This document shows, piece after piece, positions 21,393 through 40,975 of a DNA stretch of 64,000 nt. The notes under the pieces are model-generated. The model was not told where the DNA came from and did no database searches. It worked only from the letters and a program-made list of their open reading frames with translations. Position 1 is the first letter of the stretch. Each line of letters starts with the position of its first letter. This stretch comes from Clavaria fumosa. Lineage: Eukaryota > Basidiomycota > Agaricomycetes > Agaricales > Clavariaceae. Made by a program: the position numbers and the translations under genes. The DNA is taken from NCBI GenBank assembly GCA_951802425.1, contig OX637796.1:1426001-1490000 (forward strand), in the 5' to 3' direction.

Positions 21393-21451
21393 GATAAGGT
21401 CAGAAAAGAAAAGGTTCATCACCTGGCACCCAACTCAAAGTCTTTATTATA

Positions 21452-21772
21452 TTGCCGTTTTCAGCGCAGTTGGCGGAGCTTGAAATCTGCCAAATTCGGC
21501 ACTGGACAAGCCTTCAACTTGCGAGATGAATATCTCACTAACTACTGCAGATATAAGAACGAAATTGACATTTCCTGAATCCGCTTGATGAGGGCTAGGC
21601 AGCCCCACCATTTCCATAGAAATTGAGCTAGAAATGAAGGAGATGTGATTGTATGGCCAGCTTTCACATATGAGACAAATTCCGTTTCAAATATCTATTC
21701 TATCATTTGGTTTTGGGCTTCAAAATGCACCTATTGGATGTGTTGAGGCAGCCCCAGCATATTTTTATTGTG
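21452..21772 (+). repeat. Left terminal inverted repeat of element 1
   Basis: This arm matches the reverse complement of 27843-28165 at about 95% by eye, with scattered single-base differences. It ends 88 bp before the accessory gene start codon, so promoter elements probably lie in the repeat. Confidence 0.9.
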
Positions 21773-21859
21773 GAGAAAATTGTGCGCTGTACCATGCACA
21801 ATGTCTTCCTGGTGGCTGATAAGCTTGTACCACGTTTGCCACAACTGCCCCTACGACCC

Positions 21860-23530
21860 ATGGGCTCGAAGCAACATGCCTCGAAACGCATCCCTGCTTC
21901 AAAGCGTGTCACTGGCCAACGGAAAACTGCTAGAAAAGATTCCTCTCCTACCATTGGTCCTATGCCAGTTGCAAATGAACGGCCTCCAAGTCAGCCTCGG
22001 CCTCGCCCCCAACCTCAGCTTCAATCTCGCCCCCCTTATAAACCAAGAGTCAGAGACATCCCTGAAGAGGACGAACAAGCTGAGAATGATGTCAGCTTGC
22101 ATGATATTGCAGAAACATTTGCACAAGAGTCCCAAAAGGCACAAGATGCTGGAAGCCTTGCTCTTCGAAGCGATACAGAAAGTGATGATTTTGTGCTTGA
22201 TGAAGAAGTCCATGGGACAATTGCAGGTACGAGCCACCTACCATGTTGACTTAGATTTTGAATCATTCATCTGTTTTTGTGCCTTCGCAGATCATCCTGT
22301 AATCGACCTCACATTTGAAGTGCCTTTCAGAAATGCGTCACGCGATCTTATTGTCAAGTCTGACATCACCTTCGCCTCATTTCTATCACGCGTCGCAATC
22401 AAAATGGAAACCAGTTTGATTTGTCTATCACAGATTGGCTATATTCTTCCTTGGAAGACCCCGAGGTCAGGGAAACCCGTTGCGAAGCTTCTTGAAGATG
22501 AAGACTGCTTCCACAAGTTGATTGAACACATCTGGGCTTATATCGACGAGCAGAAAGCAAAGAACCGTGGCAAGGGCAAGGTAAAACCCTTTAGTGTCCA
22601 GATAATTGACACTTCAGAGGTCGAAGCAACTGGAAAGGTATGTCTTATTCATGGATAATGATTAGACGTCTGATACACTTGCAATGTTAAGGGCACAGCA
22701 AAAAAATTGAACTCGGCAAAACCAGCATCGTCGCATCAGCACATTCCTGGCCCCCCCTCAGTTCAAGACCAAGAGCATCAGCTTCTGGACGTTCTGGAGA
22801 GGAAACACATGTGCCAGGAGCACAGCGTGCCATGCTATATACAGGCGAATGGCACGCATTACCAGTACACCCTCGAGGATCTTACTATTTGGGCAGCGCT
22901 GCTGGTGAGTGGTCTTCCTTGCACGCATCCTGATTATCAACATCATTTATACAGGCAAGACGCCTTGCGACAATCGACACGCCTCCGGATAAGTTGAATC
23001 TCGCAGACAAATGCCTGCGGCAGGCCCAAGTCAAAAAACGGCAAACGTCGCAACCACCTACAAGCAATCCTGCCGAAACGATGGCCGCATCATCGTCAGA
23101 ACCCCCCGTTTGGGCTCAAATGATGATGATGATGATGGGAGGTGCCTTTGCGAGCAACAACCCGTATGCAAATCGCTCCTCGACTCGCCCTGACCTGTTA
23201 TCATCACCGACTTCACCCCCACATTGGTCATCACCCATGCCAATGAAGCGCACCTCAAGTGACATTACTGTCGACTATCCAGATCTGGAGGAGTGGCTTA
23301 ACGCAATCCAGGAGCACCCTGTCCGCAATAAGCACAAAGAGGATTTCTTGCAATACGCTGGCACTCTCGTGCATGTCCACAAGTTATTCACAATTGAAGA
23401 TATCATTCCCCTCACAGGCAGCGAGCTGGCACAAGTCAGTGGGATGGAGTTTGGGATGGCTTCACGCATCTTGCGCTTTGCAAAAGAAGACGCATCGGCC
23501 ATGGAGAAACAGAAGAAGGCTCGCACCTAG
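21860..23530 (+). CDS. Transposon accessory protein with SAM-like C-terminal region (4 exons, ~500 aa)
   Basis: This is an unnamed protein encoded beside a transposase. The start is MGSKQHASKRIPASK at 21860, just inside the left inverted repeat. The order is: a basic, disordered N-terminus; an acidic linker; a globular block (VPFRNASRDLIVKSDITF, ILPWKTPRSGKPVAKLLEDE, KVKPFSVQIIDTSE); a Cys/His patch (ERKHMCQEHSVPCYI) with IWAALLARRLATID; a disordered Met-rich linker; and a C-terminal helical block (YPDLEEWLNAI to GMASRILRFAKEDA). That last block resembles a SAM (sterile alpha motif) fold. Introns are 22227-22290, 22638-22691 and 22905-22954. The protein at 36509-38464 shares the same block order and a 213-nt exon of identical length. 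I infer a DNA- or transposase-binding partner. This is not demonstrated. Confidence 0.75.
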
Positions 23531-24651
23531 CTACATAAAATTCCGTCTTTCTCTCACACTGGGAATGCGTAATCATTTGTTCTGTCTACTATATTGTCAG
23601 GAAAATATATACCCAATGCTTTGATTCACGGAGAGTTTGAGTGAGAGCTGCTGCTAGAAAGGGCGGGGACTGGGTGACACCAATATGTATCATGTGAAAC
23701 CGGCTCGGTGCACATTGTCAAGGCTGATTTTATTGATAATGACCAGCAGTACCCAAGCCCAATGTCGTCTCTTCTGTCTGCACCATAGATAAAACAGTAA
23801 CAGGTCTGGCAGCGATATTATATCGCACCTTGTCCTCCGTCTCGCGCTTACCGCCCGCCTGTGATCTGCCATGACCCCACTGCACGATTGTTTGAAACGC
23901 GTCCTCAGCACGCTATCTTCACCCCCCGAGGTGGTGGGGACCCTTCGGCTAAGGAATGATGTGACTTATGACGTTCCCGCAGCACGTGCGCCCGCACTTC
24001 TGCCTCGCACTCCGTCGATTCTGGGTCACAGGCTCTCGAAGCTGGGTTGCGGGTCGCTGCTGAGTACCCATACAGGTGGAATATGATGACCTGTATGGGA
24101 GGATGTGGAAGACGAGCCGGTTGCGAAGGCGCCACGGGATTCATGTGGATACTCCATGTCGAAGTCGCGCTCAATATCACACTGATCCCTGTCATGTCGA
24201 GGATCGTACCTAGTCTTGCCGCATGATGTGGAGGGGTGCGTGGACAGGGCCGGGGGAGCAGAAAGTCTGCTCAACAGCTTCGAATCCCAATGGGCACGAG
24301 TGAGACACGCGTGGTGATGGCTTAGGGCTTTGCAGAGCATGGGACGCAAGGGAGCACGCACTGAAAGCATATTGCTGCGGATACTCGCTGGCCGCCTTTC
24401 CTGATCCCACTCGCAGCTCTGCTCACTGTGGGCGCCTCATCTTCCTACCTTCCCTCGGGCTCAACTGCACTGAGGCGGGCCAGTTCATGAGGGTAATGAG
24501 GAGGTCAGTGGGGTATGACACTCAACCGCCTCAGGCCAGAAGTACATCTGGTATGAAGTAGCATGGGTGTGCATGCAGCTCGGCTGCGGCAGTGGTGGGG
24601 CAGAATGCGAGGGCACCCGAAGCCGTGGATGACGGCCGTTGTGAATATCGC
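23531..24651. other. Cargo of element 1, unidentified part
   Basis: About 1.1 kb without a supported gene. On the minus strand a frame around 24026-24230 reads RYDPRHDRDQCDIERDFDMEY. It looks like a charged, disordered host protein segment and could be another captured exon. I cannot identify the donor. No transposon gene is visible. Confidence 0.35.
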
Positions 24652-25975
24652 GTACCACACATCTCTCCTGGGTTGACCAACGATTGGTTGAACCGGGCTT
24701 CAATCTCCCCAACAACGCCTCCCGGTTGAGATGAAACTCGTCAAGGATACGTCGGGCTGCGAAAGTGGCTCGAAGGTGCATCCGGAACATCAGCGCCGCG
24801 TTGTCCAGCGCTTCGCGACTCAGCGGATCATCTCCCGGGGCGACAACGAGACGTTTGCACAGCTCCTTCACTGAGTCGATTATATCGAGATCGCTAGGCT
24901 TTCTGCGGTCGATGCGGAAGACCTGCTGGGCGTTTTGGGCGATACGGCTAAGGTTGACGGGTAAGCTGTGCTGCTCTGCAGGGTCCGTGCGAGAGAAGAT
25001 GAATTCGCGCAGGACTCTGCGGTCCTCACGGTGATTATACTCCTCATCGACCTTCGCTTGAAGCTCGAGGGAGCTCAAGCCCGACTTGCAACACGCCAGG
25101 GGGAGATCCACGAGTGGGGTCAGTGACGTCAGCACGATACGCGCGCTCAAACGCTTTGTCGCTGTAGCCATACCCATCCCGTCTTCACCATACACAAATT
25201 GGATGAGGTCGCCGAGAGAATTGCGGACGGTTCCGTCGTAGCAAACCATCAGATCTTCGAGATCCTTTACCAACCAGCGCTGAATGTAGCCCGTTTCTGC
25301 CGTCTTGACAGCTGTGTCAATCGAGACCTTTGCGACCGGCTATGACATGGAAAAAGAATTCCTGAGGAGTCAGACCTCGAAGATATGAATTCTTGACGAG
25401 GCCCCGCGCCTCAGGATCGAAGTCGTCCTTCGTGAAGTGGGGCAGCGTCCTATGCTGAAATCCAAACGGGATGCGACAGCCTTCCACAATCTGCTGGCCA
25501 ACGCAAACCGACATCTGCGAGATGTTGATGAAAGTATCCTTGGATCCAGCGGTCACTATCTGCTTGACGTTATTGTCTGGCTTCAGGTTCTCCTGTGCAA
25601 ATTGACCCGACGTGCCGCGCGTCTGATTGAGTTGGACCGTCACCTGGGACTCGAACGATTCACGAATGGTCATTCCTGGCTTCGGCTGGAGCTTGCCCTG
25701 GGACGCCAGCTCGATGATGTCCGCGACCCGCTTCTTGCATTCTGTGATGGTTTCGGTGATGAACTGCATGGTGCGATTATCGGCCGATCCCTATACTGAA
25801 ACCATTATGAAAAAGCCAGAAATTTACGATCATCTGAATGCTGTTGAACAGCTGCTTGGTGATATCGGGACCTTTCTCGCGGAACGTGACGTGGATCAGG
25901 CCGCCCTGCGCAGTACCCAGTCTTTTTATCCATAATGCCAAAGATGATGGCACCGTTTTCAATCATCTTGTGTAG
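24652..25975 (-). pseudogene. RPB1: Captured, frameshifted fragment of RPB1 (RNA polymerase II largest subunit)
   Basis: Minus-strand frames spell a middle segment of Rpb1 in the correct order. The blocks are [191 protein letters not shown] and [19 protein letters not shown]. It lacks the N-terminal catalytic region and the CTD, and is interrupted by frameshifts (for example near 25320 and 24720). It ends abruptly at 24652. It is a fragment carried inside element 1, not the working gene. Confidence 0.88.
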
Positions 25976-26221
25976 ACTAGGCTGCCAGTCGACAATTATT
26001 ATAAAGACGAGACAAATGGTACTCACTCTCCATCCTTGAGACGTTGCTCGACAATCCAGCCGTACTGAAGAAACGCATCCGCCCGCTTATTGTATTGAAC
26101 ATCTATCGCTCTCCAGTATCCCTCACGACGTAGCGTGCACCGGGATACTGATTTGGCCCGTTCCGCACAAGCTCCTGCAGATAAGCGAAAGCTGTTGTAG
26201 CAGGACGGTGGAGCAAGAGGC

Positions 26222-26530
26222 TTCTAGGGCATCGCGGAACTGATTGAGCTGGAAATAAAGAATGCCGATGGAGCACCAGAAGGTTGGATTGCAACTGTCG
26301 GGACAGACGGCTTGTCGATATGCTTCGTAGGCCTTGCCATGATGTGCGACCAAGGAGGTACCAGCTTTGAGCGTCGCCATCAGCTGTAGTGATAATCACC
26401 ATGAGACATTTGACAGGGAAAGATGTGGGGACTTACTCGCTTTGAGACTCTTGGTCAAGTATGATCATGGTTCCGATCTTGCAAATCTCATACGGACTTC
26501 CAAGGTCAAACAACACTTCGACAATCTCAT
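26222..26530 (-). pseudogene. CYC8: Captured fragment of CYC8/SSN6 tetratricopeptide corepressor
   Basis: Minus-strand frames read [25 protein letters not shown] and [20 protein letters not shown]. These match the TPR repeats of the Cyc8/Ssn6 general corepressor. A further block, EVLFDLGSPYEIC, lies upstream in transcription order (about 26490-26530). In an intact Cyc8 it would follow, so the pieces seem rearranged. Frames shift between blocks and no start is present. It abuts the RPB1 fragment and, like it, lies between the two transposon genes. Confidence 0.72.
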
Positions 26531-26601
26531 TTGAGCAGTAAAGACAGGCAAACGACAATATATGGCCATGTTGGGCACATAAAAGTCAGGAGTGCACATC
26601 A

Positions 26602-27786
26602 TCAAATGTACCTACACTTGTGAAACCATCCCGCTGCATGATCTGCCGTCACTGAAAACGCAGCTTCATAGAGAAAGATCCACACATCAGTATCATCACT
26701 GCTCAAGTCAGCTCGAGCCACTCCACCATTACGACGAACGTATGCCTTGATTTTGGAAAATGCAAGCTCAATAGGGTTGAAATCTGGGGAATAGGCTGGT
26801 AGATAAAGGAGCCGACATCCCCTACATTAGGAAAGTGAAAGGGTTAGCACTCAAAGAGAGGAAGTGAACATGAAAGACCTCTCTTCAATCATCTCGAGTA
26901 TTTGTTGGTGCCGATGAATGCGAGCATTGTCCATGATCAGAACAGAATTCTTGGCTGGGAATGGATTCATCCTTGCAAGTAGACCTCGGATAAAGTCGGC
27001 AAAGAGGATTGAAGTAAACGATCCTTCGATCAACATGCTGTAGATGATGCCATCAAGTGAAAGTGCCGGGAGAAGTGAGTATCTGTTACAATAGGCATTT
27101 TAGCTCATTGAAAGTGTAGAGAATAACACATACCGCTTGCCCCGGATAAAGAACCCTTTCCTTGTGGCCGCCTTGCCTGACAATGCCCAAGCTCGCCCTC
27201 GAAGATCAGTCCGACGGTCAAACGCACTCTCGTCCACGAATACAGCCTGCTCCGCAGTGTAGTTGGTGCCAAAAAAGTGTCGGTATTCAAGTCGCAATCT
27301 CTCATTGCGCTCAAGCGCATTCTTGCTGAGCTGTAGCGAGTCAGTGGGGTTGAACCCACTCATTTCTAGTGTGTAACTGCTCACCTTCTTCATTGTGAAG
27401 CCACTCCTCCTCAATGTGCGCCATACAGTACTTAACGATGCTTCTGTGCCGAACCTTTGCCGCAGCAGTTCCTGTAACTCATCAAGATATGCATCTGGTG
27501 TGTGCCGGACTGATCCTTGAAGAAACTAGCAAGAATCAGTGTTGGGTGAGGCTTATGGATAGTCAAGACAACATACCTGCGCCTCTTGTGTTGTGAGAAG
27601 TCGTTTTGATGACTGGAGAAGGCGAGGGGGGCAATTGATAGTACCTCGTTGTCTGAAGTTGGTCAAGAGACGTTCTATGGTGCGGCGAGGAACTCCAGTG
27701 TGGTAAGAGATCTCATCGTTGCTCAGGTTTGAAGACATCTGGAGAATTATCTGGCGTGCATCGTTGGAGAGTGCCTGTCCACGCAT
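26602..27786 (-). CDS. DD34E transposase of element 1 (Tc1/mariner, IS630-like DDE_3 type; 5 exons, ~323 aa)
   Basis: The enzyme cuts and joins the element ends at TA targets. The start [14 protein letters not shown] at 27786 begins a homeodomain-like helix-turn-helix ([21 protein letters not shown]). A second HTH region ([16 protein letters not shown]) follows. The catalytic domain has FVDESAFD (first Asp), LIMDNARIH (second Asp) and [12 protein letters not shown] (Glu). Exactly 34 residues separate the second Asp and the Glu. Introns are 27526-27576, 27331-27384, 27083-27133 and 26822-26878, with exons summing to 972 nt. The stop is TGA at 26602-26604. The start codon lies about 57 bp inside the right inverted repeat. 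All catalytic residues and frames are intact, so activity is plausible. Confidence 0.9.
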
Positions 27787-27842
27787 GCTTGTGGCAACTG
27801 TCACATGCCGGTGAGGAGAACAATCCAATGTGCCCTGCCACT

Positions 27843-28165
27843 CCTGCAACAAAGAAATATTGGGGCTGTCTCAGCACACCCCATAGACACATTTTAAGGC
27901 CCAAAACCAAATGATAGAATAGATATCTGAAACAGAATTTGTCTTGTATGTGAAAGCTGGCCATACAATCACATCTCCTTCATTTCTAGCTCAATTTCTA
28001 TGAAAATGGTGGGGCTGCCTAGCCCTCATCAAGCGGATTCAGGAAATGTCAATTTCGTTCTTATATCTGCAGTAGTTAGTGAGATATTCATCTCGCAAGT
28101 TGAAGGCTTGTCCAGTGCCGATTTTGGCAGATTTCAAGCTCCGCCAACTGCACTGAAAACGGCAA
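27843..28165 (-). repeat. Right terminal inverted repeat of element 1
   Basis: Inverted partner of 21452-21772, ending CGGCAA followed by the TA target dinucleotide. Sequence just inside carries the 5' region of the transposase gene. Confidence 0.9.
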
Positions 28166-28720
28166 TAATTTAATTTCCAAATGCTGGTATTAGCATTGAT
28201 ATCTCCAAAGAACTGCAACTCAACCCACTATCCAACCCCCCCTGGAAGGACTCACTCGACAATCACCCACACATCAACACTATACTCCCCCCGGGCCCTG
28301 TGGTCCAGTGGGAGAAAGGTCCCACACGGCCACAGGTCGAGCTCGTAATTGGGGTCATGAGTTCAAACCGCTGAGGGGGCATAATAAATTCTCAGTTAAT
28401 TCAATTCCCCAGTAATCACCATCATGTGATGATGTGCTGGCAGGTATAAAGTGACTAGTTGGGAGCCTTACAGCTGTTTGCGAAATTATTGGCAGCACAT
28501 CAATTACGTAAGTTTTTTTCCGTTTGTGCAGCAGAAAACATCGCACAAATTATAGCTTGTTCAATTCTTCATTGATTTGAGTGATTTAGATGCAGAAAAA
28601 TTTTGCGCAGGGCCTGGTATAATTTTCATTTTCATGCATGTATTGTTGCACCCAAGAAAATTCAAATATTAGTTTTGATGACATCAGCCACAACTCAGAT
28701 GCATCCTGATACTCAACCAT
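28166..28720. other. Spacer between elements 1 and 2
   Basis: About 550 bp without coding evidence, holding the tRNA-like repeat described separately and AT-rich sequence on both sides. Confidence 0.4.
28293..28380 (+). repeat. tRNA-derived SINE head (pol III A and B boxes)
   Basis: TGGTCCAGTGG at 28301-28311 fits the pol III A box. GAGTTCAAACC at 28359-28369 is close to the B box, at tRNA-like spacing. The flanks cannot be folded into a perfect acceptor stem by eye, and an AT-rich tail follows. I call it a tRNA-derived short interspersed element rather than a functional tRNA. Confidence 0.5.
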
Positions 28721-28724
28721 GCGC

Positions 28725-29345
28725 TACACTGCTGCCCCGACCTTGGCTGTCTATTCTATTTCACAGTCAGATGTATTCGATGTCTGGTCAGGTGCCAGCA
28801 TCCCTTGCTCCATCATCTGCGCCCCAACAACACTTTCCGATGGACGATCACAACAGCTAGTGCCCACCCTCCTCCAGGTTATTTATTGGATAGCGAATGA
28901 CCGAAGAGTTGAGCTCTATGCACAGGACATTCTGGAGCTTCGGTTCTCTATCTACCACAATGCTCTCATGCTACAAAGTGCTTTCATGCACACTGGGACC
29001 ATGTCAGACACATTCTTATGCGACCATCTCAAGTGGCTGGGTATAGCCTCCGATTGGGCCAATTTTTCGGCGATGGTGGCTTTGGGAGTGATACACAAGG
29101 GCTTAGAAGAAGGTATGACTATCCTTGGTCCCTACCTCCCATCGTTTGCTGGCGAAAGCCAACTACAAGGTGCTGCTTATTCAGAAGGCACCCATTCCTG
29201 CAATACCAAGGCCGAGCGCCACGCTGTGCTGCATGACTTCTCCTTGCGCAGATTTTAGGCTGTCCTGTAAGTTACCCTCCGCCATCCATCCACTTCCACA
29301 TCCTGCATTGATCAGCCCGAGAGTATACAGAGCACTGGACGAAAT
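28725..29345 (+). pseudogene. RPN2: RPN2 (26S proteasome regulatory subunit) fragment in the left arm, part 1
   Basis: Rpn2 is a scaffold of the proteasome lid and base. This fragment reads YHNALMLQSAFMHTGT, MSDTFLCDHLKWLGIASDW, NFSAMVALGVIHKGLEEG and TILGPYLPSFAGE in frame, matching the PC-repeat region of Rpn2. The matching inverted arm (39366-39870, -) continues with LYTLGLINAGCGSG and GEVMQHSAALGLGIAGMGA. No catalytic function is expected and the frame is later broken. The fragment is cut at 29345 by the copia insertion and continues at 34096. Confidence 0.8.
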
Positions 29346-29590
29346 TGAAGAAAGGCGACGGCACGCCCGCCTCGGATCCGCCCACGGATCCGCCACTTCT
29401 CTCGTTGCACCGCACTCGTACGTTGTATTAGCTCCCACTCTTCCTCTTGGACTGTCCTCTTCTTTTCTTTTAACCTCTTGCACTGTGCTTCTCGCGCCCT
29501 CGCACTCCCCTTTTATACGGACACTCTACGTAGTTGGCGGGTTCACGCTTTCTCGTTCTCCCACGTGAACTCGCAGCTGCGCCGCTGTGA
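29346..29590 (+). repeat. 5' LTR of the copia element
   Basis: It begins TGAAG and ends CGCTGTGA, and is nearly identical to the 3' LTR except for a 78-bp segment missing here. It contains CT-rich sequence (29455-29480) and TTTTATA near 29511. Confidence 0.9.
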
Positions 29591-29594
29591 GATT

Positions 29595-32500
29595 ATGAGA
29601 CCCGCACGGGCTAACCTACTCGAGATGTCGTCCGGAGATGCTTTCAAGTCCCCAAAGTTGAATGGCCAGAACTATGCATCATGGTCAGTTCACATGCAGT
29701 CTGTTTTGCAGTCCAAATACCTTTGGCTGGTTGTGAAGGGCACGGAGACTTGCCCACCTGGTCCGGACACCGCACCAACCGCCGCGATTCCGGATGATGA
29801 ACGCAAGGTGCGCATTCGAGATCACCTTGACTGGGTTTCACGAGACGAGGCCGCCCAGGGCCTGATGCATGGCGCTACCGACAAAACCCAGTGGCTGCAT
29901 GTTGTCAACTGCATCACATCAAAGGAGATGTGGGATTCCTGGAAACGAGTACACCAGGAAAATCAGCAGAAGATCAATGTACACTACTACTTTGAAGAAC
30001 TATATACACAAAAGTATGCGGATGACATGCCAATGGCCAACCACATTGCCGCGATCCTCGATATACGACACCGCATTGCCCAGGCCGGCGAGCAGATTAG
30101 CGACCTCCACGTCGCGCGGGCAATGATTCTCTCCCTGCTGAAGACCCCGTCATGGGAAATCATTAAAATACAACTATTCGACGTTGAGACTCTCACCCCC
30201 GAGATTGTCAGCACTAAGCTCCAGGCTGAGGTGAACAGACGTGTCCGAGAAAAGTCCGGAGGCCAGACGGCGCTCCAGGCAACTGCGAGAAATCAGAAGG
30301 GCAACAAGGGCAGAGGGCCTCAACCAGGCGACGAGTGCCGATACTGTCACGAGAAGGGGCATTGGGCGAGTAATTGCCCAAAGCTCGAGGGAAGGGAAAG
30401 GAAGTCGAGCAGCGCACCTTCGGTGTCCTCGACTAACGCTGGGACGGCCAACATGGCCGTCGACAACCTTCAGGACCTGGGCGCGAAGGCCGTGGGGCGG
30501 GTTTACCTCGCCACCAGCCCGCGTGCCGCTACTGGGATCATCCTTGATTGCGGGGCGACAGCACACATGTTCTGCGACCGCCAGCTGTTCTGCTCCTACA
30601 CACCCTCATCAGGACAATCCATATCAGTAGGCGACGCCCACAACATACCCATTGAAGGACACGGCAGCGTATGCCTAAAGGCACGACTGCCAGGGGATAT
30701 CGGGAGGTAACACTCCACGGTGTCATGCACGTGCCAGACCTGGCTATGAACTTAGTAAGTCTCGGAGCCCTCCAGCGCGAAGGGGCCGAGTATCGAAGCC
30801 TCACCGGTGGGCTCGTTGTGACGCATGAGGGCGACGACCTCCTGCGTGCAAAGCTTGAGGGAGGGCTATACCATCTAGAGCAGGTCGATGAGAGTCCGCA
30901 GGTCGCCTACGGCGCCACGGCCGGCGCGAACATGCGACTATGGCACCGCAGATTCAGACATCTGCATCTCGAAGCCATCCGTGAGCTGGCGCGAAAAGAT
31001 ATGGTAGACGGACTCACCATCTCGAATGCCAGCGACTACGACCGCAACTGCGAGGGGTGCGCGATGGGGAAGTCCCACCGGCTCCCCTTCCCGTGAGCCA
31101 GCACTACACACCACGAGAAGATGGAGCTCGTTGTTGTAGACTTGACTGGGCCCATGTCTGTTGAGACTTGGTCAGGGATGCAGTACGCCCTCATTTTTGT
31201 TGAGGCTCACTCTAGGTACGGGGTAGGCCGACTCTTGAAGTCGAAGGACAGCGAGACCGTCTCAGACACCTTGAAGGCGACGATCAGCATGCTGGAGCGT
31301 CAGTCGGCTACGAAGGTCAAAAAACTAAGGACTGACAATGGCAGGGAGTTCATTAATAGCATCGTCGAGGAGTTCTGCAAATGCGAGGGGATACTCCATG
31401 AGACGACAGCCCCTTACACCCCAGAACAAAACGGTATCGCAGAGCGGGCGATTGCGACCTACTTCGAAATGGTGAGGTGCATGTTACATGCATCTGGGAT
31501 GGACTTACGTTACTGGGGGGAGGCCCTCATGTACGCTATCCACATTCGGAACCTCTCGCTGACATCAGCTATACCCGGGAAGGTCCCCTACGAGATCTGG
31601 ACAGGGCGAAAGCCCGACGTGTCGCACCTACGGGTATTCGGGTCAATCGCATATGCAAACATTCCGAAGAAAGTCAGAGGGGGAAAGCTCGAGGCCACCG
31701 CTGTGAAATGCTGCCTCTTGGGATGGTGGTCTGATGAAACGAAAGGTTACAGGCTTGAGGACGTCGAGACGAAGGATCTGATCACCTCGCGCAACATACA
31801 ATTTGTCACGGATGAGGGGCCAAAAGACTTGGCCACTGTAGAGGTAACGAGCTCCCATTCCGCTCACGATTCGCCGCAGGACCAAACAAGTAGAGGAGCA
31901 ACCATCAGCAAAGTTCCAGACGACGACTCGACGCCACGTACCAACGCAACCATGGAGGAACAGCTCGACGATTCGCCTCCCGTTACTGATCCCCCAGCGC
32001 CGGCAACCCCCAAAATGAAGCCCTTGCGATGGGAGAACCTGCCGCCGCAGGAACACCCAGAGCGCCGCCGAGCGGCGGCCACGCGGTATGGAGTGGAGGC
32101 GACCGAAGAAGACGTTGCAGCAGCTTTAGCAGGCCAGGAGGGTCAGCACACCACCTTCGTTGCAGTGGGAGGTGAGCCCCGCACTCACTGAGAGGCCATG
32201 CAGTCTCCGCATGCAAAGCAGTGGGAGGCAGCTTTGGCTGCCAAATTTGCTCAGCTGAAGAACTCCGGGACGTTTGAATGGGTCGAGCGAGTTCCGGAGG
32301 GCCGCAAGGCGATAGGGAGCAAAGCCGTCTATCGAGAAAAACGCGATGGCGAGGGGAGGATCGTTAAGTACAAGGTTCGAATCGTCGTGAAGGGCTACTC
32401 ACAGGTACCAGGCCAGGATTTCGACCTAACATTCTCATCAGTAGTGAAGTTCACAACGTTGCGAGTCCTATTGTCTTTGTGTGCTTGTGAGAACTGGGAG

Positions 32501-33775
32501 TTGCACCAAGTTGACGTTGTGGGAGTGTACCTGCAGGGCAATCTTGATGAAGAAATCTACATGACACCACCCGAAGGCATTGCTGTCCCCAGGAAGGCCG
32601 GCTGGTCGTGGCAATTGCGAAAAGCGCTCTACGGGCTCAAACAGGCCGGTCGCCAATGGAAGCTGAAGCTCGACCAAGCCATGGGAAAGCTGGGCTTTGT
32701 GAAGGGGCACGCCGACGACTGCTTGTACATACGATGAACACCAGGCAAGAGCATCGTCCTGGTCCTCGTATACATCGATGACATGGTGGTGGCTGCAGAG
32801 CAGAGCGCGGAGGTAGCATGGTTCAAGGCAGAGCTGGGAAAAATCTTTGAACTAACCGACTTAGGCGAGTTACGACTCATCCTTGGAATCCAGGTGAAAC
32901 GCGACCGCAAGGCATGCACCATTCAGTTGGATCAGACGGCATACATCCGAGAACTTTTAGTGCATCACGGGATGCAGGGCTGCACCCCCGTGAGTATGCC
33001 GCTCGCCTCGAAAGAACGCCTCACCACTGCCCATTCCCCCACCTCCCTGGCTGACAAAGCTCTTTACCTGGAATATGCCAAGGGGTTGAAATATCCAGAG
33101 GTACTCGGAGGCGTCCTTTATGCCACTCAGACCAGGCCGGACATCCAGCACGCCATCAGTATCTGTGCTCAGTTTAGTGCAAACCCTGGGAAACCGCACC
33201 TCGAGGCCCTGAAACGCATTCTTCATTACCTTGCGGGAACAGCCCATTTAGGGCTTAGGCTAGGAGGGTGTAACGAAACCCTTGATCTAGTGGGTTGGAC
33301 TGACTCTGATTGGGCCCAGGACCCAGACACGCATCGCTCCATCAGCAGCTTCGTCTTCGAAGTCGCGGGCGGGTTCGTCTCCTGGTCCTCAAAGAAACAA
33401 CCCACTGTTGCACTCTCGACCGTCAAGGCCGAGTACATGGCTGCCGCCAACTCCACCAAAGAAGCGGTTTGGCTTCGCACCCTCCTTCAGGACCTTGGCT
33501 TCTCCCAGAACTGTGCTACGACCATCCACGCTGACAACCAGGGATGCATTGCGCTCTCCCGCAACCCCGTCACCCATTCTCGCGCCAAACACATCGACAT
33601 ACGGCACCACTTTGTTTGTGAGTGCGTCGCTCAATCTGAAATCTCACTTCTATTCTGTCCTACTGAGAACATGATTGCCGACATCCTCACGAAAGCACTA
33701 CCTCGTGACGCATTCGAGCGATTCCGTACGGCCTTAGGCGTTGTGGAAGAGTCGGGCCGCGCCGAGTGGGAGTGA
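29595..33775 (+). pseudogene. Copia Gag-Pol polyprotein, disabled by one frameshift and three in-frame TGA codons
   Basis: Gag starts at 29595 or 29625 (MSSGDAFKSPKLNG). A CCHC knuckle (CRYCHEKGHWASNC) and a protease motif (LDCGATAHMF) follow. The frame shifts near 30690-30710. The second frame continues with the GAG-pre-integrase region (LWHRRFRHLH...CEGCAMGKSHRLPF), integrase (VVVDLTGP, TDNGREF, APYTPEQNGIAERA), reverse transcriptase (HQVDVVGVYLQGNLDEEIYM, ALYGLKQAGRQW, LVYIDDMV) and RNase H (WTDSDWAQD, ALSTVKAEYMAAA, HADNQGCIALS, HIDIRHHF). Stops are TGA at 31094-31096, 32189-32191 and 32735-32737, all in the same frame. Otherwise it is intact, so inactivation is recent. Confidence 0.92.
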
Positions 33776-34095
33776 AGAAAGGCAACGGCACGCCCGCCTC
33801 GGATCCACCCACGGATCCGCCACTTCTCTCGTTGCACCGCACTCGTACGTTGTATTAGCTCCCACTCTTCCTCTTGGACTGTCCTCTTCTTTTCTTTTAA
33901 CCTCTTGCACTGTGCTTCTCGTGCCCTCGCGCTCCCCTTTTATACGGACGCTCTATGTAGTTGGCGGGTTCACGCTTTCTCGTTCTCCCGTGTGAACTCG
34001 CAGGTATGATAACCAAACTGTTCGTATTATTCTTGTTAACTAATAAAGCATGCTTTCTCGTTCTCCCATGTGAACTCGCAGCTGCGCCGCTGTGA
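33773..34095 (+). repeat. 3' LTR of the copia element, with a 78-bp intron-like insertion
   Basis: It matches the 5' LTR but carries an extra 78 bp at about 34004-34081. The insert begins GTATGA, includes CTAATAA and ends TCGCAG. Its last ~30 bp duplicate the LTR sequence just upstream of the insert. Confidence 0.88.
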
Positions 34096-35035
34096 GAAAT
34101 AACAAAGCGTATGACGACCTCAAGCAAACCCTATTTACGGACTCGGCTCTTGCTGGCGAGGCAGCTGGATATGCCATGGGCCTCATCACATTGCACACAG
34201 GGCAATCATCACCACTTCTGGGCACACCCATCATTGTTGGGGCCGGCGCTCAGCGATGACCATGCTGCATCGTGCTGCAGGACTTCTCCTTGCACAGACT
34301 TGAGACTGTCCTGTAAGTAACCCTCCACCATCTATCTGTTTCCACATCCTGCATTGATCAGCCTGAGAGTATAGAGAGCACCGGAAGAAATAACAAAGCA
34401 TATGACGACCTCTCCACTCCAATTTCGACTATGAGCTGTGGCTCGCTAAAGAAGGGGAGTCTTAGGGGACATCCATGCCACTGCAGAACTTCGTCAAAAA
34501 GCCGCATCTTCAGTATGTCCACCTAATCACTTGTGCCCCATGATAGAGGCCTCTGACAGACAATAACTACCAGGAACCATCTACTTGTACTCCGGAGCAC
34601 GCATTGGAGGAAGCTGAGATTCTAGTTCATCACCACTGGCTCTGTGTGCACCTTGTGGGACGCCGTGGTAGCACAGAGAAAGGGATCGCATCTATCGTCT
34701 CAGTTATGTGGATGAGTCCCACTGCGTCAGCCATCAGAAGGTCTTCACTAACCCTGTGTAGCGAAAACAGGGTTGTGCAGAATGCCTAGTTAGGTACCAC
34801 TAACATAGCTTGTGACGAGGAAATACTCATGTATGCGCAGGAGACACAGCACGAGAAGATCATGTATGTAGTTTTGCAATTTGCAGTCAACTCTTTTTTG
34901 TGTGCCCATGCTTTCAACACGTGACCCTGCATCTGCTCGACATCCTACCTCGCATTGCTCATTGTCCTGCCTTGTATCTTTGACACAGCACAAGTAGCTC
35001 ATTCGAGGACTTGCCATTGTCATGTGTAGGCCAGT
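34096..35035 (+). pseudogene. RPN2: RPN2 fragment in the left arm, part 2, with internal duplication
   Basis: After the copia insertion the frame reads AYDDLKQTLFTDSALAGEAA and GYAMGLITLHTG. Further on, MYAQETQHEKIM (about 34831-34866) ends at an intron donor GTATGT, and IRGLAIVM resumes at about 34999. These are consecutive Rpn2 PC-repeat blocks. Between them lies a second copy of the segment starting at ACTGTCCTGTAAG (34302 on), duplicating about 29258-29345 plus 34096-34125. Sequence between 34430 and 34800 is not recognised. Homology to the right arm stops near 34980, so the last block is unique to this side. Confidence 0.75.
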
Positions 35036-35223
35036 CAGTGGCTAGAAGTATTGCTACTAGTAGATTTATTGCAAGCTGATGTGTGGACCAGTTTATCCAT
35101 GCTCGTGATGGCACGTGAGGTCGCTTCTCGTTCGTTCCTCAGGCCTCAACGTGCATGGGCGTATGCTCATGCCAGGCCAACCAACACAAGTTCTTCGTGC
35201 TTTACTATCCTGCTCCCCTTCAG

Positions 35224-36415
35224 ATGACTCGTGGACGCCGTGTGTCAGAGGATCTCCGCCGCATCGTCATCCATATGGCAACTGCTCTCTCTTGCAACGT
35301 CGATGCTATCAACAAGCTCACCCTCATTCCTTGTCGGACTATCGAACGCATACTATCGACACACCAGCAAGGCCAACAAGTCCCACCCAGAAGTTCTGTG
35401 CAGCTCTGTGGTCGCAGGAGGGCATTGGACTACGATGATCTTGCTGTGCGTTCTCTGCCAGTTTCCCTTTGCAGCCTAACTGATATGTATCTGGCAGTTC
35501 CTTCGACGTCTCCTGCTGCATCGCAATGACTTATACCTTTCTGAGTTGAAGGAATATCTTTCAGAGATGTCTGGTAAGACTGTGAGTGAAACGACGGTAT
35601 GGCACTCCTTGCGTCGGTCAGGATTTCAGATGAAAAAGGTATGCCTTTAGTACTCTAAGAACGCACTGAGATTACTTGAATATCCTCCCCCAGATCTCAA
35701 GGGAGGCTGCAGAACGAAGTGAAGAGCTGAGGACGGCGTACTGTACACGCATTGGCCTCAAATATGAACCGGAACAGCTGGTATTTGTCGATGAGAGCGC
35801 CTGTGACTGACGAACATATGTTAGAGGTCAGGCTTGGGCATTGGAGGGACAGCGAGCATCCAGGAAGGTTTTTTTTGTTCGAGGAAAACGGTGAGAGCAC
35901 ATTTATTCAAATTCCTGTGAACTGAAAATGATACTGGCCAGATATTCTATCCTTCCGGCACTAACGTTGGATGGGATGCTTCATTGCAAGATTGTTGAAG
36001 GGTCTTTTGATGCGCAGCTCTTCTTGTGCTTCATTTCAGAACTACTTAACTGCATGTGGGCTTTTCCGGGCAAGAAGTCTGTGATTATTATGGACAATTG
36101 CTGTATCCACAAATCCCCTGAAGTCATTGAGATGATTTATGCGCGGTAAGGTTGCAAGGATCCCCTTTCACCATTGCTGACATCTTTTGCAGTGGAATGC
36201 ATGTGGAATTCCTCCCTCCTTATTCGCCAGACTTCAACCCCATCAAACTTGCCTTTTCGGTCATCAAGAAATGGCTTCAACGTGACGAAAGGCATGTTGA
36301 AGGACTTTGGAGACAGGCAAATGATACAAACGTGTATGCTCATCTCTTCAAAACTGTATACTCTATCTCCTCTCAAGCAGCGCATGGTTTCTTCCATCAT
36401 TGTCGATATGTGTAG
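35224..36415 (+). pseudogene. Transposase of element 2, inactivated (nonsense codon and catalytic Glu to Lys)
   Basis: It is homologous to the transposase at 26602-27786, with the same exon layout. The start is MTRGRRVSEDLRRI at 35224. Introns are 35446-35497, 35639-35693, 35891-35941 and 36146-36192. The first catalytic Asp is present (FVDESACD), but the next codon is TGA (35808-35810) where the relative has Arg. The second Asp is present (IIMDNCCIH). The third catalytic residue is Lys in SPDFNPIKLAFS instead of Glu. The protein would end HHCRYV at 36415. Both lesions make it non-functional. Frames elsewhere are intact, so decay is limited. Confidence 0.88.
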
Positions 36416-36508
36416 CACGTAGCTTGAAATCACAAATTTGCTTTCATTGCATTACTATTCACAATGAACAAAGAGATACTTGAACGAATGAATGAAGGAA
36501 CTGGTCTC

Positions 36509-38464
36509 CTAGATATGCAACTTCTGGCCTTTCTTGAGCTTTTGAATGTCTTTGTGAGCAAAGTGCAGTATCCTACGTCCTGTCCCAATCTCCATTCTGG
36601 TGCAAATCTGCAGGAGATCGGCAGCCTGCAACTCTACAAAATCATCCAGCCGAAGGAGCCACTTCCCGATCAGCGCATCCACGTACTGCGCATAATTCTC
36701 ACCATCACGTCCACCGACAAAATCTCTATCACAAAATTCAAGCCAAGCCTTCGAATCAGGATAAAGCACCAGCAATTCATTACCTGCCAGATTGGCCACA
36801 AGTTGGTCATTGGAAAATGGGCAGTAACGAAAGCCGTCTGTGTCCTGAGTCTGTGGGGGGGCACTTTGGTTCAATGGCAGCAGTTGGTATCCTGGAGGAA
36901 TTTGGAAAGGCATGTAAGGAGAGGGAAAGCCGAATGCTCCCAATTGTGGCAGCATGAAGGGATTGAAGTTGAGATTGGGCATGGTCTGTTGCAAAGGGAG
37001 GGGCATGCCAGAGACGGCCATATTCGGTTGCATCGCCATGGTAGCCTGTGGTAGTCCGACTGTCTGGGGCATGGCTTGAACTGGTACGGAAGCGCCTGCC
37101 ACCTAGCAGCAGAATTAGACATTGAACAAACGGCCTAAAGGTGGAGTTTACCTGTGTCTGCATTGCGATAACAGGAGTGGGTGGAGCTGGGATCAGTGTT
37201 GGGAGGGGCGGATTTGGGGTTGCCATCACAGGTTCCGAAGACAGGCTATTTGTACGCTTGCATTTTGGCACATGGTCATACAGCTTCAGTTGCGCAGGGG
37301 GTTTCTCTATGCCCACCCCTTCAAAATTCCTAGTCTGAATGGTGTCAGCTGCGCAAATAAACAACAAGAACAAGAAAAGCTCACAATAAGCTCAGCCCAT
37401 TGTGCAATCTGAGCTATGGTGAATGGTTCGTGTGTGCCATCACTTCGTACATAATCAGCAATCTTGTGCTCGTTGCAATGGTGACGACTATTGATCTCTT
37501 GAATGATTGAGTTCAACTTTGCATCACGCACTGCAGCTGCTACCGCATCTCGATTTTCTGTGTGCACAGAAGTTGCTGGCCCAGACTTCTTTGAAGGCTA
37601 TTGGGGAGGAGTAAAATTCAAGACAAGCATGGAACAGAGACAAGAAATGAATCTGTTACCTTTGGGACACTGTCTTTATCAGAGCGAAGATCAAAAAGCT
37701 GAATAGAGATATCCTTCACCTTTTTCTTTGCTATTTGCTCGGTGCACCATATCTGAGTGTCTGCCTTCAACTTTTCAAATGCATCAGCATCATCGAGGAT
37801 TTTTGGGGTAGCCTTTTGGTTGGATTTGACTTTCCATGGTAAAACGTAGCCAAGCACAAGAGATGAGGAGTGACAATCCATAATACGAGCGACATTATCA
37901 ACAAAAAGCGACCAGGTCCAAATACTCTTGGCAGACAAGTCTCGAGAGTATTTACCACAGGGGACTTCAAACGTAATCTGATATGGGGGTGGAAGATCAG
38001 GAGGCGGTGTGATCTCCTCATCTGGTAACTCATCAGCAAGGCCGGCAGCTTCAGGAAATTCTTGTCAAGATAAATAAAGGTTCTCAGTAAAGGAGGGACC
38101 ACACATACCAGTAGAGATGTCTTGATCTTCACCATGATCCTTCTCGAGTACTCTAAGTGTGCTATGAGCAACATCGTAGAAGCTAGCCTCTGCTTCTTCA
38201 TCATCATTCTCATCGTCATCTGCCTCTTCAACCTCAAGTATAGCTGACATCTTCGCACTCGGTTTCTTGACTCGTTTGTGCTGATATGAGAAAGGGTGAT
38301 GGGTAAGACATGTAATTAGTGAGGAAATAAAAAAATACCTGTGTTGCTTCTCCAGATAGACTGTGCGGAGCATTTTTCTTCGGTCGCCCAACCGTTTTGG
38401 ATGGTTTTGTGGAAACTTGAGCAGTAGTTTTCAGATGTGATTGGCCATTTCTCTGATTGCCCAT
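36509..38464 (-). CDS. Transposon accessory protein of element 2, SAM-like C-terminal region (6 exons, ~562 aa)
   Basis: This is a relative of the protein at 21860-23530. The start is MGNQRNGQSHLKTT at 38464. A basic AT-hook-like stretch (GRPKK), an acidic linker and the shared block follow (CGKYSRDLSAKS, LVLGYVLPWKVKSNQKATPK, DISIQLFDLRSD). Next come a Cys/His patch (SRHHCNEHKIADYV), TIAQIAQWAELI, a long Met/Pro/Gln-rich linker and the C-terminal helical block (DSKAWLEFCDRD...MEIGTGRRILHFAHKD). Introns are 38281-38338, 38061-38108, 37598-37659, 37335-37384 and 37103-37151. Exon 4 is 213 nt, exactly as in element 1. The frame is open throughout, unlike its partner transposase. Retention of the same gene pair argues that it takes part in transposition or its control. 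Confidence 0.78.
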
Positions 38465-38499: not shown

Positions 38500-40440
38500 G
38501 AGCAAGACAACAAGCAGGACAATGAGCAACGCGAGGTAGGATGTCGAGCAGATGCAGGGTCACGTGTTGAAAGCACGGGCACACAAATCAGATGGGTTTA
38601 CTGCAAATTGCAAGACTACATACATGATCTTCTCGTGCTGTGTCTCCTGCGCATACATGAGCATTTCCTCATCACAAGCTACATTAGTGGTACCTAACTA
38701 GGCATTCTGTGCAACCCTGTTTTCTCTATGCAGGGTTGGTGAAGACCTTCTGATGGCCAACGCAGTGGGACTTGCCCGCGTAACTGAGATGATAGACGTG
38801 ATCTCTTTCTCTGTGCTACCACGGCGTCCCATGAGGTGCACACAGAGCCAGCGGTGATGAACTAGAATCTCAGCTTCCTCCAATGCGTGCTCTGGAGTAT
38901 GAGTAGATGGTTCTGGGTAGTTATTGTCTGTCAGAGGCCTCTATCATGGGGCACAAGTGATTAGGTGGACATACTGAAGATGCGGCTTTTTGACGAAGTT
39001 CTGCAGCAGCATGGATGTCCCCTTCTTTAGCGAGCCGCAGCTCATAGTCGAAATTGGAGTGGAGAGGTTGTCATATGCTTTGTTATTTCTTCCGGTGCTC
39101 TCTATACTCTCTGGCTGATCAATGCAGGATGTGGAAGCGGATGGATGGTGGAGGGTTACTTACAGGACAGTCTCAAGTCTGTGCAAGGAGAAGTCCTGCA
39201 GCACGATGCAGCATGGTCATCGCTGAGCGCCAGCCCTGACAATGATGGGTGTGCCCAGAAGTGGTGATGATCACCCTGTGTGCAACGTGATGAGGCCCAT
39301 GGCATATCCAGCTGCCTCACCAGCGAGAGCCGAGTCCATAAATAGGGTTTGCTTGAGGTCGTCATATGCTTCGTTATTTCGTCCGGTGCTCTGTATACTC
39401 TCGGGCTGATCAATGCAGGATGTGGAAGTGGATGGATGGCGGAGGGTTACTTACAGGACAGCCTAAAATCTGCGCAAGGAGAAGTCATGCAGCACAGCGC
39501 AGCGCTCGGCCTTGGTATTGCAGGAATGGGTGCCTTCTGAATAAGCAGCACCTTGTAGTCGGCTTTCGCCAGCAAACGATGGGAGGTAGGGACCGAGGAT
39601 AGTCGTACCTTCTTCTAAGCCCTTGTGTATCACTCCCAAAGCTGCCATCGCCGAAAAATTGGCCCAATCGGAGGCTATACCCAGCCACTCGAGATGGTCG
39701 CATAAGAATGTGTCTGATGTGGTCCCAGTGTGCATGAAAGCACTTCATAGCACGAGAGCATTGTGGTAGATAGAGAACCGAAGCTCCAGAATGTCCTGTG
39801 CATAGAGCTCAACTCTTCAGTCATTCACTATCCGATAAATAGTGACTCACCTTCATATGTGCATATCGATCTTGTTGTTGTGTCTGAGGAATTCGAAGCA
39901 TAATCTGATCGACTCTTATCCGGTGAGAAGTCATCAAATACCTAGAACTTGCATGTATCAGGATGAGTAACAGGAATGAGAAAACGCTGGAGACACGCAG
40001 CGTCGCCCTGAGGCAACTCGTTGCGAAGACTTTCCAAGAAATCCTGGCTACCATCTTCTGTGACATCGAAGGTGAGCTGATATGCTAGGAGTTTCTTGTG
40101 TGGTACCAGGGATTTCAGCAAAGAGACAGTGAGCGTTGGGCTACTCGAAGTCGAGGAAGGTGAGTTGGAAGGGTAGAAGGAGGCACGGTGGCGATCGCTG
40201 CGACTGTCTGAGTGTGTGTGAAGATGCGGCCAGGGCGATGGGCAAGAGAAGACTGACTTGAATGTATTTGGTATGAATTGGCGGATGTGCACATGCAGCC
40301 CGGGTATCGCAGAGGTGAGGTAGAATGTGCAGGAACCTGGAGGAGGGTGGGCGCTAGCTGTTGCGATCATCCATCGGGAAGTGTTGTTGGGGCGCAAACG
40401 GTGGAGCAATGGCCCAAGCGCCCCAACCATGGTCACAGAC
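38500..40440 (-). pseudogene. RPN2: RPN2 fragment forming the right arm of element 2
   Basis: Read leftward, it gives KLLAYQLTFDVTEDGSQDFL (about 40100-40030), ESLRNELPQGDA, HSALTF-like sequence, MHTGTTSDTFLCDHLEWLG, YTLGLINAGCGSG, GEVMQHSAALGLGIAGMGA and MYAQETQHEKI. It is the inverted counterpart of the left arm and includes an exon missing there. It stops about 36 bp upstream of the accessory gene start codon, so captured RPN2 intron sequence sits where the promoter should be. Stop codons and an internal duplication (39066-39180 against 39366-39470) show it is not a working gene. Confidence 0.78.
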
Positions 40441-40975
40441 CAATGGTGGGACTGGGGCCATTGGTAGCAGCTGGGCAGGGGATGGCAGCAACGGCAGGGC
40501 AGGAGCAGCAGGGTGGGGAGCGGGTGGCAGGCGGTGGCAGGAGGGCTGGTGGCTGGTGGCAGCAGGGCAGGGAGAAGGAGCAGCAGGGGCAGGGCATAGC
40601 AGTAGTGCGGGGAATGGCAGCGGCAGCAAGGCGGGAGCAGCGGGGTGGGGAGCGGGTGGCAGGCAGTGGCAGAAGGGCGGGCGGCGGGTGGCGGCAGAAG
40701 GGCGGGCAGTGGGTCGGCGGCAGAAGGGCGGGTGGCAGGTGGCAGCAGAAGGGCAGAGGCGGGTGGCAGGTGGCAGCAGAAGGGCAGAGGTGGGTGGCAG
40801 CAGCAGAAGGGCAGAGGCGGGTGGCAGCAGCAGGGTGGGCAGTGGGTGGCAGCAGCAGGGCGGGTGGCAGGTGGCAGCAGAAGGGCAGAGGCAGGTGACG
40901 GCAGAAGGGCGGGCAGTGGGTGGCAGCAGCAGGGCAGGCGGCAGGTGTCAGCAAGTGGGATGCATGATGGTGAGG
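40440..40975. repeat. Purine-rich minisatellite (GGCAGCAGAAGGGC-type units)
   Basis: Degenerate tandem units such as ggtggcagcagaagggc recur for more than 500 bp. Long open frames on both strands here are by-products of base composition. It directly adjoins the outer end of element 2. Confidence 0.8.

What the first reader, a model, noticed from the sequence alone, without database searches (positions are those of the whole stretch)
21452..38464. A Tc1/mariner-like transposon family with a conserved second gene, present twice
Both element 1 and element 2 pair a DD34E transposase gene (26602-27786; 35224-36415) with an unrelated second gene (21860-23530; 36509-38464). The two genes are convergent and each reads inward from an inverted repeat. 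The accessory proteins share block order, a Cys/His patch, a SAM-like C-terminal helical region and a 213-nt exon of identical length, although their linkers are unrelated. Typical Tc1/mariner elements carry only a transposase. Co-retention of both genes in two diverged copies implies the second protein is part of the mobility system, for example a target- or end-binding partner. I do not recognise this gene pair as described.
Basis: partly seen in the sequence, partly recalled or inferred. Interest (0 to 1): 0.88.

Follow-up and report, generated by a model that had tools for sequence, protein, structure and literature searches.

The report
Two-gene, gene-snatching mushroom jumping genes
This fungal genome, likely a mushroom's, carries several families of cut-and-paste jumping genes in which the predicted DNA-cutting enzyme travels with a conserved second gene whose protein is predicted to self-assemble and likely binds DNA, and at least three of these families also carry pieces that look like copies of ordinary genes.

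Summary
Confirmed and extended. Element 1 (21450-28167) and element 2 (from 28469; right end missing) each pair an IS630/Tc1/mariner DD34E transposase with a second gene between inverted repeats. Element 1 has three copies, 99.4-99.99% identical over 6.7 kb, at three sites: a recent move as a two-gene unit. The pair is not special to these two: 18 of 25 accessory loci found in this genome lie within 7 kb of one of 35 transposase loci (random placement: mean 0.26, maximum 4 in 5000), in tandem, convergent or divergent order. A terminal motif occurs 12 times, as six inverted pairs, each enclosing both genes. The second protein has a predicted PB1 fold, a Cys/His block and a SAM/HhH-like domain; three groups add a Zn2Cys6 pattern. 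In the one usable comparison dN/dS is 0.29 (transposase) and 0.32 (part of the accessory). The window's element 2 looks dead. What the second protein does is inferred.

The parts
21450..28167 (.). Element 1, whole unit with TA at 21450-21451 and 28166-28167; TIR begins TTGCCGTTTTCAG
   Evidence: Copies on C5 (99.985% over 6721 nt) and C6 (99.436% over 6739), alignment stops at these ends; TA read at both ends of all three copies, flanks differ
21452..21770 (+). Element 1 left terminal inverted repeat, with box TTGGCGGAG at nt 19-27 from the end
21860..23530 (+). Element 1 accessory gene, 500 aa, exons 21860-22226, 22291-22637, 22692-22904, 22955-23530
   Evidence: Splice model by GT-AG and homology; homologues in Hypsizygus, Lentinula, Russula, Mycena
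22291..22637 (+). Exon coding the predicted PB1 domain
22692..22904 (+). 213-nt exon coding the Cys/His block (H-x-C-x2-H-x4-C)
   Evidence: no fold match when predicted alone
22955..23530 (+). Exon with low-complexity linker and SAM/HhH-like C-terminal domain
24024..24649 (-). Host fragment: CYC8/SSN6-like gene piece (74% DNA identity to the C3:1626686 locus; gene name recalled)
24650..25967 (-). Host fragment: RPB1 (RNA polymerase II largest subunit) piece, 90% DNA identity to the C9 locus; abuts the CYC8 piece; reading frame broken
   Evidence: Pfam Rpb1_4/5/6
26002..26105 (-). Second, non-adjacent RPB1 piece (93%)
26215..26465 (-). Second CYC8 piece (78.5%)
26602..27786 (-). Element 1 transposase gene, 323 aa, DD34E, HTH domains
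   Evidence: Pfam DDE_3 102 bits, NCBIfam IS630 178.9 bits; reading checked
27847..28165 (-). Element 1 right terminal inverted repeat
28469..29345 (+). Element 2 left end: TA at 28469-28470, TIR begins CAGCTGTTTGCG, box TTGGCAG here (TTGGCGG in the C10 copy) at nt 19; outer part of left arm with CYC8 and RPN2 fragments
29346..34003 (+). copia-type LTR retrotransposon nested in element 2's left arm (not part of the element)
   Evidence: direct repeats 29346-29576 / 33773-34003, 97%; gag-pol ORFs recognised by eye
34096..34980 (+). Element 2 left arm, inner part, with further RPN2 pieces, some inverted
35224..36415 (+). Element 2 transposase gene; window copy has an in-frame stop and a substitution at the catalytic Glu; the C10 copy has neither
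36509..38464 (-). Element 2 accessory gene, 562 aa, exons 38464-38339, 38280-38109, 38060-37660, 37597-37385, 37334-37152, 37102-36509
38504..40412 (-). Element 2 right arm with RPN2 and CYC8 fragments; outer about 340 nt, present in the C10 copy, missing here

Best explanation
These are two-gene IS630/Tc1/mariner DNA transposons of a likely mushroom-type fungus, in which a DD34E transposase gene is carried together with a second gene whose PB1-Cys/His-SAM protein is predicted to self-assemble and likely binds DNA, so that it would load the transposase onto the inverted ends. Shown here: the pair recurs in diverged families of one genome, in different gene orders; in the elements read in full both genes lie between the same inverted repeats; whole two-gene units have moved recently; both genes show purifying selection in the one pair that could be tested; elements 1 and 2 carry host-gene fragments. 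Predicted: PB1 fold, SAM/HhH-like fold and, in three groups, a Zn2Cys6 cluster. Inferred, untested: the accessory binds the element ends (or promoter), oligomerises through PB1 and SAM, and helps pair the ends and recruit the transposase, as TnpA or the Harbinger Myb-like protein are recalled to do in other superfamilies. Also inferred: the host fragments came in when repair of an excision gap switched template to unrelated chromosomal DNA.
Confidence: 0.5

Rival explanations
1. The accessory is an anti-silencing factor or transcriptional activator: it would bind motifs in its own element, keep the chromatin open and the transposase expressed, and play no direct part in the DNA cutting step (as VANC does for Arabidopsis VANDAL elements, or as proposed for TET/JBP enzymes carried by fungal transposons).
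For: Zn2Cys6 clusters are the DNA-binding domain of many fungal transcription regulators (recalled); Pfam and six-Cys pattern in three groups. Methylation-type decay is visible: 65 of 85 transitions are in CpG between window element 2 and its C10 sister (3.6-kb stretch). Other fungal DNA transposons carry TET/JBP dioxygenases (PMC12730594: abstract and passages); VANC induces methylation loss in its TEs (PMC5735166: abstract).
Against: No catalytic domain was recognised; PB1 and SAM are interaction modules and fit a scaffold at least as well. Tandem motif arrays like VANC targets were not searched for.
Confidence: 0.27
2. The second gene is a passenger: an ordinary regulatory gene captured once by an ancestral element and kept only because it lies inside the repeats.
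For: These elements do pick up host DNA: RPB1, CYC8 and RPN2 fragments, and fungalysin fragments whose donor was not sought.
Against: Accessories stay largely open in families that share only 22-29% identity and show dN/dS 0.32 in one comparison, whereas the RPB1 fragment's frame is broken; gene order has changed without loss of the gene.
Confidence: 0.08
3. The accessory is a separate module that any element of this type can borrow: accessory-only units exist and are mobilised in trans.
For: Four accessory-like copies with identical scores (C2:4711417, C3:225873, C4:4024156, C7:219577) have no DD34E hit within 90 kb; gene order differs between families.
Against: The 2.3 kb upstream of one copy reads as retrotransposon-like sequence without a transposase match, so these may be fragments amplified by a retroelement; 18 other loci are paired.
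Confidence: 0.1

Closest known systems
Tc1/mariner (ITm) DD34E elements in general
   Same: DD34E transposase with HTH domains, TA at the ends, terminal inverted repeats
   Different: Tc1 elements are described with a single ORF, mean about 1.3 kb and mostly ~30-bp TIRs (passages of PMC7325037); here 4-12 kb, TIRs 216 nt to about 2 kb, two genes, host fragments
Tec and TBE elements of ciliates
   Same: DD34E transposase plus extra ORFs; Tec has ~700-bp TIRs (passages of PMC7325037)
   Different: Their extra ORFs are a site-specific recombinase (Tec) or a zinc-finger protein and a small ORF (TBE); no recombinase domain was found in accessory 1 or homologues. Different hosts
TET/JBP-carrying DNA transposons of fungi (KDZ, Plavaka, IS3EU and others)
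   Same: Fungal cut-and-paste transposons that keep a second, mostly undisrupted gene (PMC12730594, abstract and passages)
   Different: Their accessory is a dioxygenase, and the main text does not mention mariner (0 occurrences); ours is a PB1-SAM protein
VANDAL/VANC, Harbinger (transposase plus Myb-like protein), En/Spm TnpA
   Same: Multi-gene DNA transposons in which a second protein binds element DNA (VANC: abstract of PMC5735166; Harbinger and TnpA recalled)
   Different: Other superfamilies and accessory families; binding not shown here
Pack-TYPE transposons of plants, including Pack-Mariner in rice
   Same: Host coding fragments between the TIRs (passages of PMC8903248)
   Different: Pack-TYPE elements are defined as non-autonomous; elements 1 and 2 keep their own two genes beside the captured pieces
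MUGB (MUSTANG-B) proteins
   Same: PB1 domain linked to a transposase lineage (passage of PMC8616336)
   Different: There a PB1 exon was acquired by a plant TE-derived protein; here PB1 is in a separate transposon-borne protein

Membership tests
IS630-Tc1-mariner superfamily | DDE/D catalytic triad with DD34E spacing | tested here: met
   34 residues between second D and E in E1, E2 (C10) and E3; Pfam DDE_3 and NCBIfam IS630 for E1
IS630-Tc1-mariner superfamily | TA target-site duplication at inverted repeat ends | tested here: met
   TA on both sides of three E1 copies, of E2 in C10 and of E3 in C4. No empty site was compared
IS630-Tc1-mariner superfamily | single-ORF element of about 1.3 kb (typical Tc1) | tested here: not met
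   E1 6.7 kb, E3 3976 bp, two genes each
Tec elements | site-specific recombinase ORF | tested here: not met
   No such Pfam hit in accessory 1 or homologues P0001-P0008; confident folds are PB1 and SAM/HhH-like
TBE elements | three ORFs, one a zinc-finger protein | tested here: inconclusive
   Two element genes found; the Cys/His block and Zn2Cys6 cluster were not compared with the TBE protein
PB1 domain | ubiquitin-like PB1 fold | tested here: met
PB1 domain | Pfam PB1 profile match | tested here: inconclusive
   No Pfam match for acc1 or homologues; OPCA-like acidic run LLEDDES read by eye
SAM domain | five-helix SAM fold | tested here: inconclusive
Fungal Zn2Cys6 cluster | six-Cys pattern and Pfam Zn_clus | tested here: met
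   Element-3 accessory: 22.7 bits in C2 copy (cut-off 21), 20.0 in C4 copy; pattern also in L043 and L048, but 11.1 and 14.0 bits. Not found in accessory 1 nor by reading in accessory 2
Pack-TYPE transposons | captured host coding DNA between TIRs | tested here: met
   E1 and E2 with donor loci; E4 fungalysin pieces, donor not sought
Pack-TYPE transposons | no transposase of their own | tested here: not met
   E1 carries an open transposase gene
VANC-like anti-silencing proteins | binding to own element and loss of methylation | not testable with these tools
   -
Harbinger two-component system | Myb/SANT-like accessory that binds TIRs and transposase | tested here: inconclusive
   No Myb profile in accessory 1 or homologues; binding itself not testable

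The most novel reading that the evidence does not exclude
An undescribed lineage of Tc1/mariner transposons in mushrooms works as a two-component machine: a DD34E transposase plus a dedicated PB1-Cys/His-SAM (often Zn2Cys6) protein that polymerises on the ends, and the same machine copies and shuffles pieces of essential host genes into its body and ends, making autonomous 'Pack' elements.
Probability: 0.4. Interest if true: 0.85.

Novelty: new variant of a known kind. Interest (0 to 1): 0.72.

Why it matters
Tc1/mariner elements are the textbook one-gene transposons and gene-transfer tools. A fungal lineage that keeps a second, conserved protein across diverged families suggests that some members need or profit from a partner, and gives a clean system to ask what it does: element 1 has three almost identical copies, and element 3 is only 4 kb with both genes. 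The captured RPB1, CYC8 and RPN2 pieces show a mariner-type element that still has its own transposase carrying shuffled host-gene fragments. In the records seen, the accessory homologues are named only 'hypothetical', 'uncharacterized' or 'SAM domain-containing' protein.

Tried and rejected
Pfam on accessory exons and proteins: nothing above cut-off except Zn_clus in an element-3 copy. PDB sequence search of P0001: best E 1.6, discarded. Predicting the 213-nt exon alone (mean pLDDT 72) and Foldseek: no match better than E 1; this does not show a new fold. dN/dS on element 2 vs C10: set aside because of CpG transitions; for its transposase the script stopped with a division by zero because there was no synonymous change (14 differences over 1192 nt with introns). 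The first genome search with the element-1 accessory exon found only five places, and the +-1.5 kb scans of transposase loci with the element-1/2 and homologue queries made the pair look rare; the element-3 accessory as query reversed that. Considered that elements 1 and 2 share one CYC8 capture: the two pieces match only over 64 columns at 75%, undecided. Element 3 was not searched for host fragments. Three diverged TIR pieces (C11, C8, C6:236028) were not followed beyond. Papers: ten searches; among the titles and abstract starts listed (not every hit was listed) none describes a mariner element with a PB1-SAM partner; subscription papers and Repbase reports are not covered.
Full report
What is there. 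The window lies in a 48.8-Mb genome (17 contigs, no name). Element 1 runs from TA at 21450 to TA at 28167 with 321-nt inverted repeats, 93% alike, beginning TTGCCGTTTTCAG. It holds an accessory gene of four exons (500 aa) and a transposase (323 aa; Pfam DDE_3, NCBIfam IS630 178.9 bits; reading checked). Two more copies, on C5 (99.985% over 6721 nt) and C6 (99.436% over 6739 columns), stop at the same ends and have different flanks: recent transposition of the whole unit. Element 2 begins at TA 28469-28470 with CAGCTGTTTGCG; a sister on C10 (97% over the gene region) has both ends, each beside TA, spanning C10:1964387-1976384 with an insert of about 4.5 kb. The window copy of element 2 lacks its right outer end, and its transposase has an in-frame stop and a substitution at the catalytic Glu, neither seen in the C10 copy.

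The pair is general in this genome. Fetching three other transposase loci showed element 3 (C4, 3976 bp, 216-nt TIRs 98.6% alike, TA; transposase then accessory on the same strand) and element 4 (C2; TIRs of at least 1.28 kb; genes divergent); the third locus, C2:4556297, gave no accessory in 8 kb. Relatives of element 3 are on C12 (99.4% over 1872 nt), C6 (PB1 exon 97%) and C2 (92%). With the element-3 accessory as query, 16 PB1-exon places were found, 11 of them 1.5-6.5 kb from a transposase hit on the same strand; the Cys/His and SAM exons and a second transposase query added one more pair (C10:1316187/1320066). Compiled by hand: 18 of 25 accessory loci lie within 7 kb of one of 35 transposase loci; 5000 random placements gave a mean of 0.26 and at most 4. 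Two of the accessory loci were found only because their neighbourhood had been fetched (17 of 23 without them). Copies within a family are not independent, but the pairs fall into about nine groups by my grouping. Unpaired accessories: four copies with identical scores, one of them next to retrotransposon-like sequence, C3:1856739, C12:2193194, and a TIR-plus-first-exon relic on C11. Unpaired transposases (17 of 35) include seven pieces of the element-1 transposase (residues 7-175) 20-224 kb from contig ends, and four near-identical copies in which the first 67 residues were not matched.

Shared ends. Elements 1, 2 (C10) and 3 have TTGGCGG starting at nucleotide 19 from the end. The pattern TTTTCAGNNNAGTTGGCGGAG, with up to one mismatch allowed, occurs 12 times in the genome, six forward and six reverse, forming six inverted pairs on C2, C3, C4, C5, C6 and C12, each enclosing a transposase and an accessory; the reversed control pattern occurs 0 times (places compared). 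The motif was taken from elements 1 and 3, so it tests only those two families. The element-3 relative on C6 and three diverged TIR pieces do not carry it.

Selection. Between element-3 copies on C4 and C2, dN/dS is 0.29 for the transposase (322 codons) and 0.32 for accessory residues 1-267 (251 codons), one-sided Fisher p 3.6e-6 and 4.9e-5 (the script then stopped on a later comparison). Codons with gaps were dropped; the C2 accessory has a 14-nt gap here and a stop further on, so it is itself decaying. Element 2 vs C10 gave 0.40 for the accessory and no synonymous change in the transposase; 85 of 93 substitutions in the 3.6-kb stretch are transitions, 65 in CpG, so this pair shows decay, not selection.

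Host fragments. In element 1, between the two genes: CYC8 piece 24024-24649 (74%), directly abutted by RPB1 24650-25967 (90%), a second RPB1 piece 26002-26105 (93%) and a second CYC8 piece 26215-26465 (78.5%) (host genes on C3 and C9). The older CYC8 stretch thus seems interrupted by younger RPB1 DNA. In element 2 the long repeats hold RPN2 (26S proteasome) pieces, some inverted, 83-92% alike, plus CYC8 pieces (69-74%); a stretch that reads as a host intron is still recognisable (by eye), so capture was likely from DNA. Element 4 holds fungalysin M36 pieces (192.6 bits); its donor gene was not sought. Element 3 was not searched for such pieces. The name CYC8/SSN6 is recalled from the protein sequence. 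Template switching during gap repair is my inference.

Mechanism. Committed reading: the accessory is a partner that assembles on the element (PB1 and SAM are interaction modules) and helps the transposase at the ends, confidence 0.5. Main rival: anti-silencing or activator role (0.27), with fungal TET/JBP-carrying transposons (PMC12730594, abstract and passages) and VANC (PMC5735166, abstract) as precedents. That Zn2Cys6 proteins read CGG triplets, and that the shared box holds one, is recalled knowledge and only a lead.

Known or new. Extra genes in DD34E elements are known from ciliate Tec and TBE (PMC7325037, passages). Ten paper searches listed nothing on this pair. I rate it a new variant of a known kind.

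Noticed in passing
29346-34003: A copia-type LTR retrotransposon (231-nt direct repeats, 97% alike) sits inside element 2's left arm; its frames are interrupted.
   Followed up: partly
G000 C1:118323, C2:19907, C4:76662, C4:4476864, C5:66944, C11:2677217, C12:69697: A fragment of the element-1 transposase (about 93% DNA identity over 591 nt in the copies compared) with 35 nt of TIR is repeated 20-224 kb from contig ends, perhaps part of a shared subtelomeric block.
   Followed up: partly
34096-37709 versus L009: Substitutions between element-2 copies are mostly CpG transitions (65 of 93), as if by methylation-driven or RIP-like mutation.
   Followed up: partly
G000 C2:4711417, C3:225873, C4:4024156, C7:219577: Four accessory-like genes with identical scores and no DD34E transposase hit within 90 kb; retrotransposon-like ORFs lie upstream of the C3 one (L078).
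   Followed up: partly
L075 (C2:4552500-4560500), also C4, C5, C7: Four stretches, 98-99.9% identical over about 3 kb or more, carry a transposase whose first 67 residues are unmatched; a gag-like ORF follows in L075.
   Followed up: partly
40467-40946: Degenerate GGCAGGTGGCAGCAG-type direct repeats directly beyond the broken right end of element 2.
   Followed up: no
L076 3291-1175 (C4:3927000-3935000): Accessory of element 3 carries a stop before its last helix in the C4 copy; C12 and C6 copies have longer open frames.
   Followed up: partly
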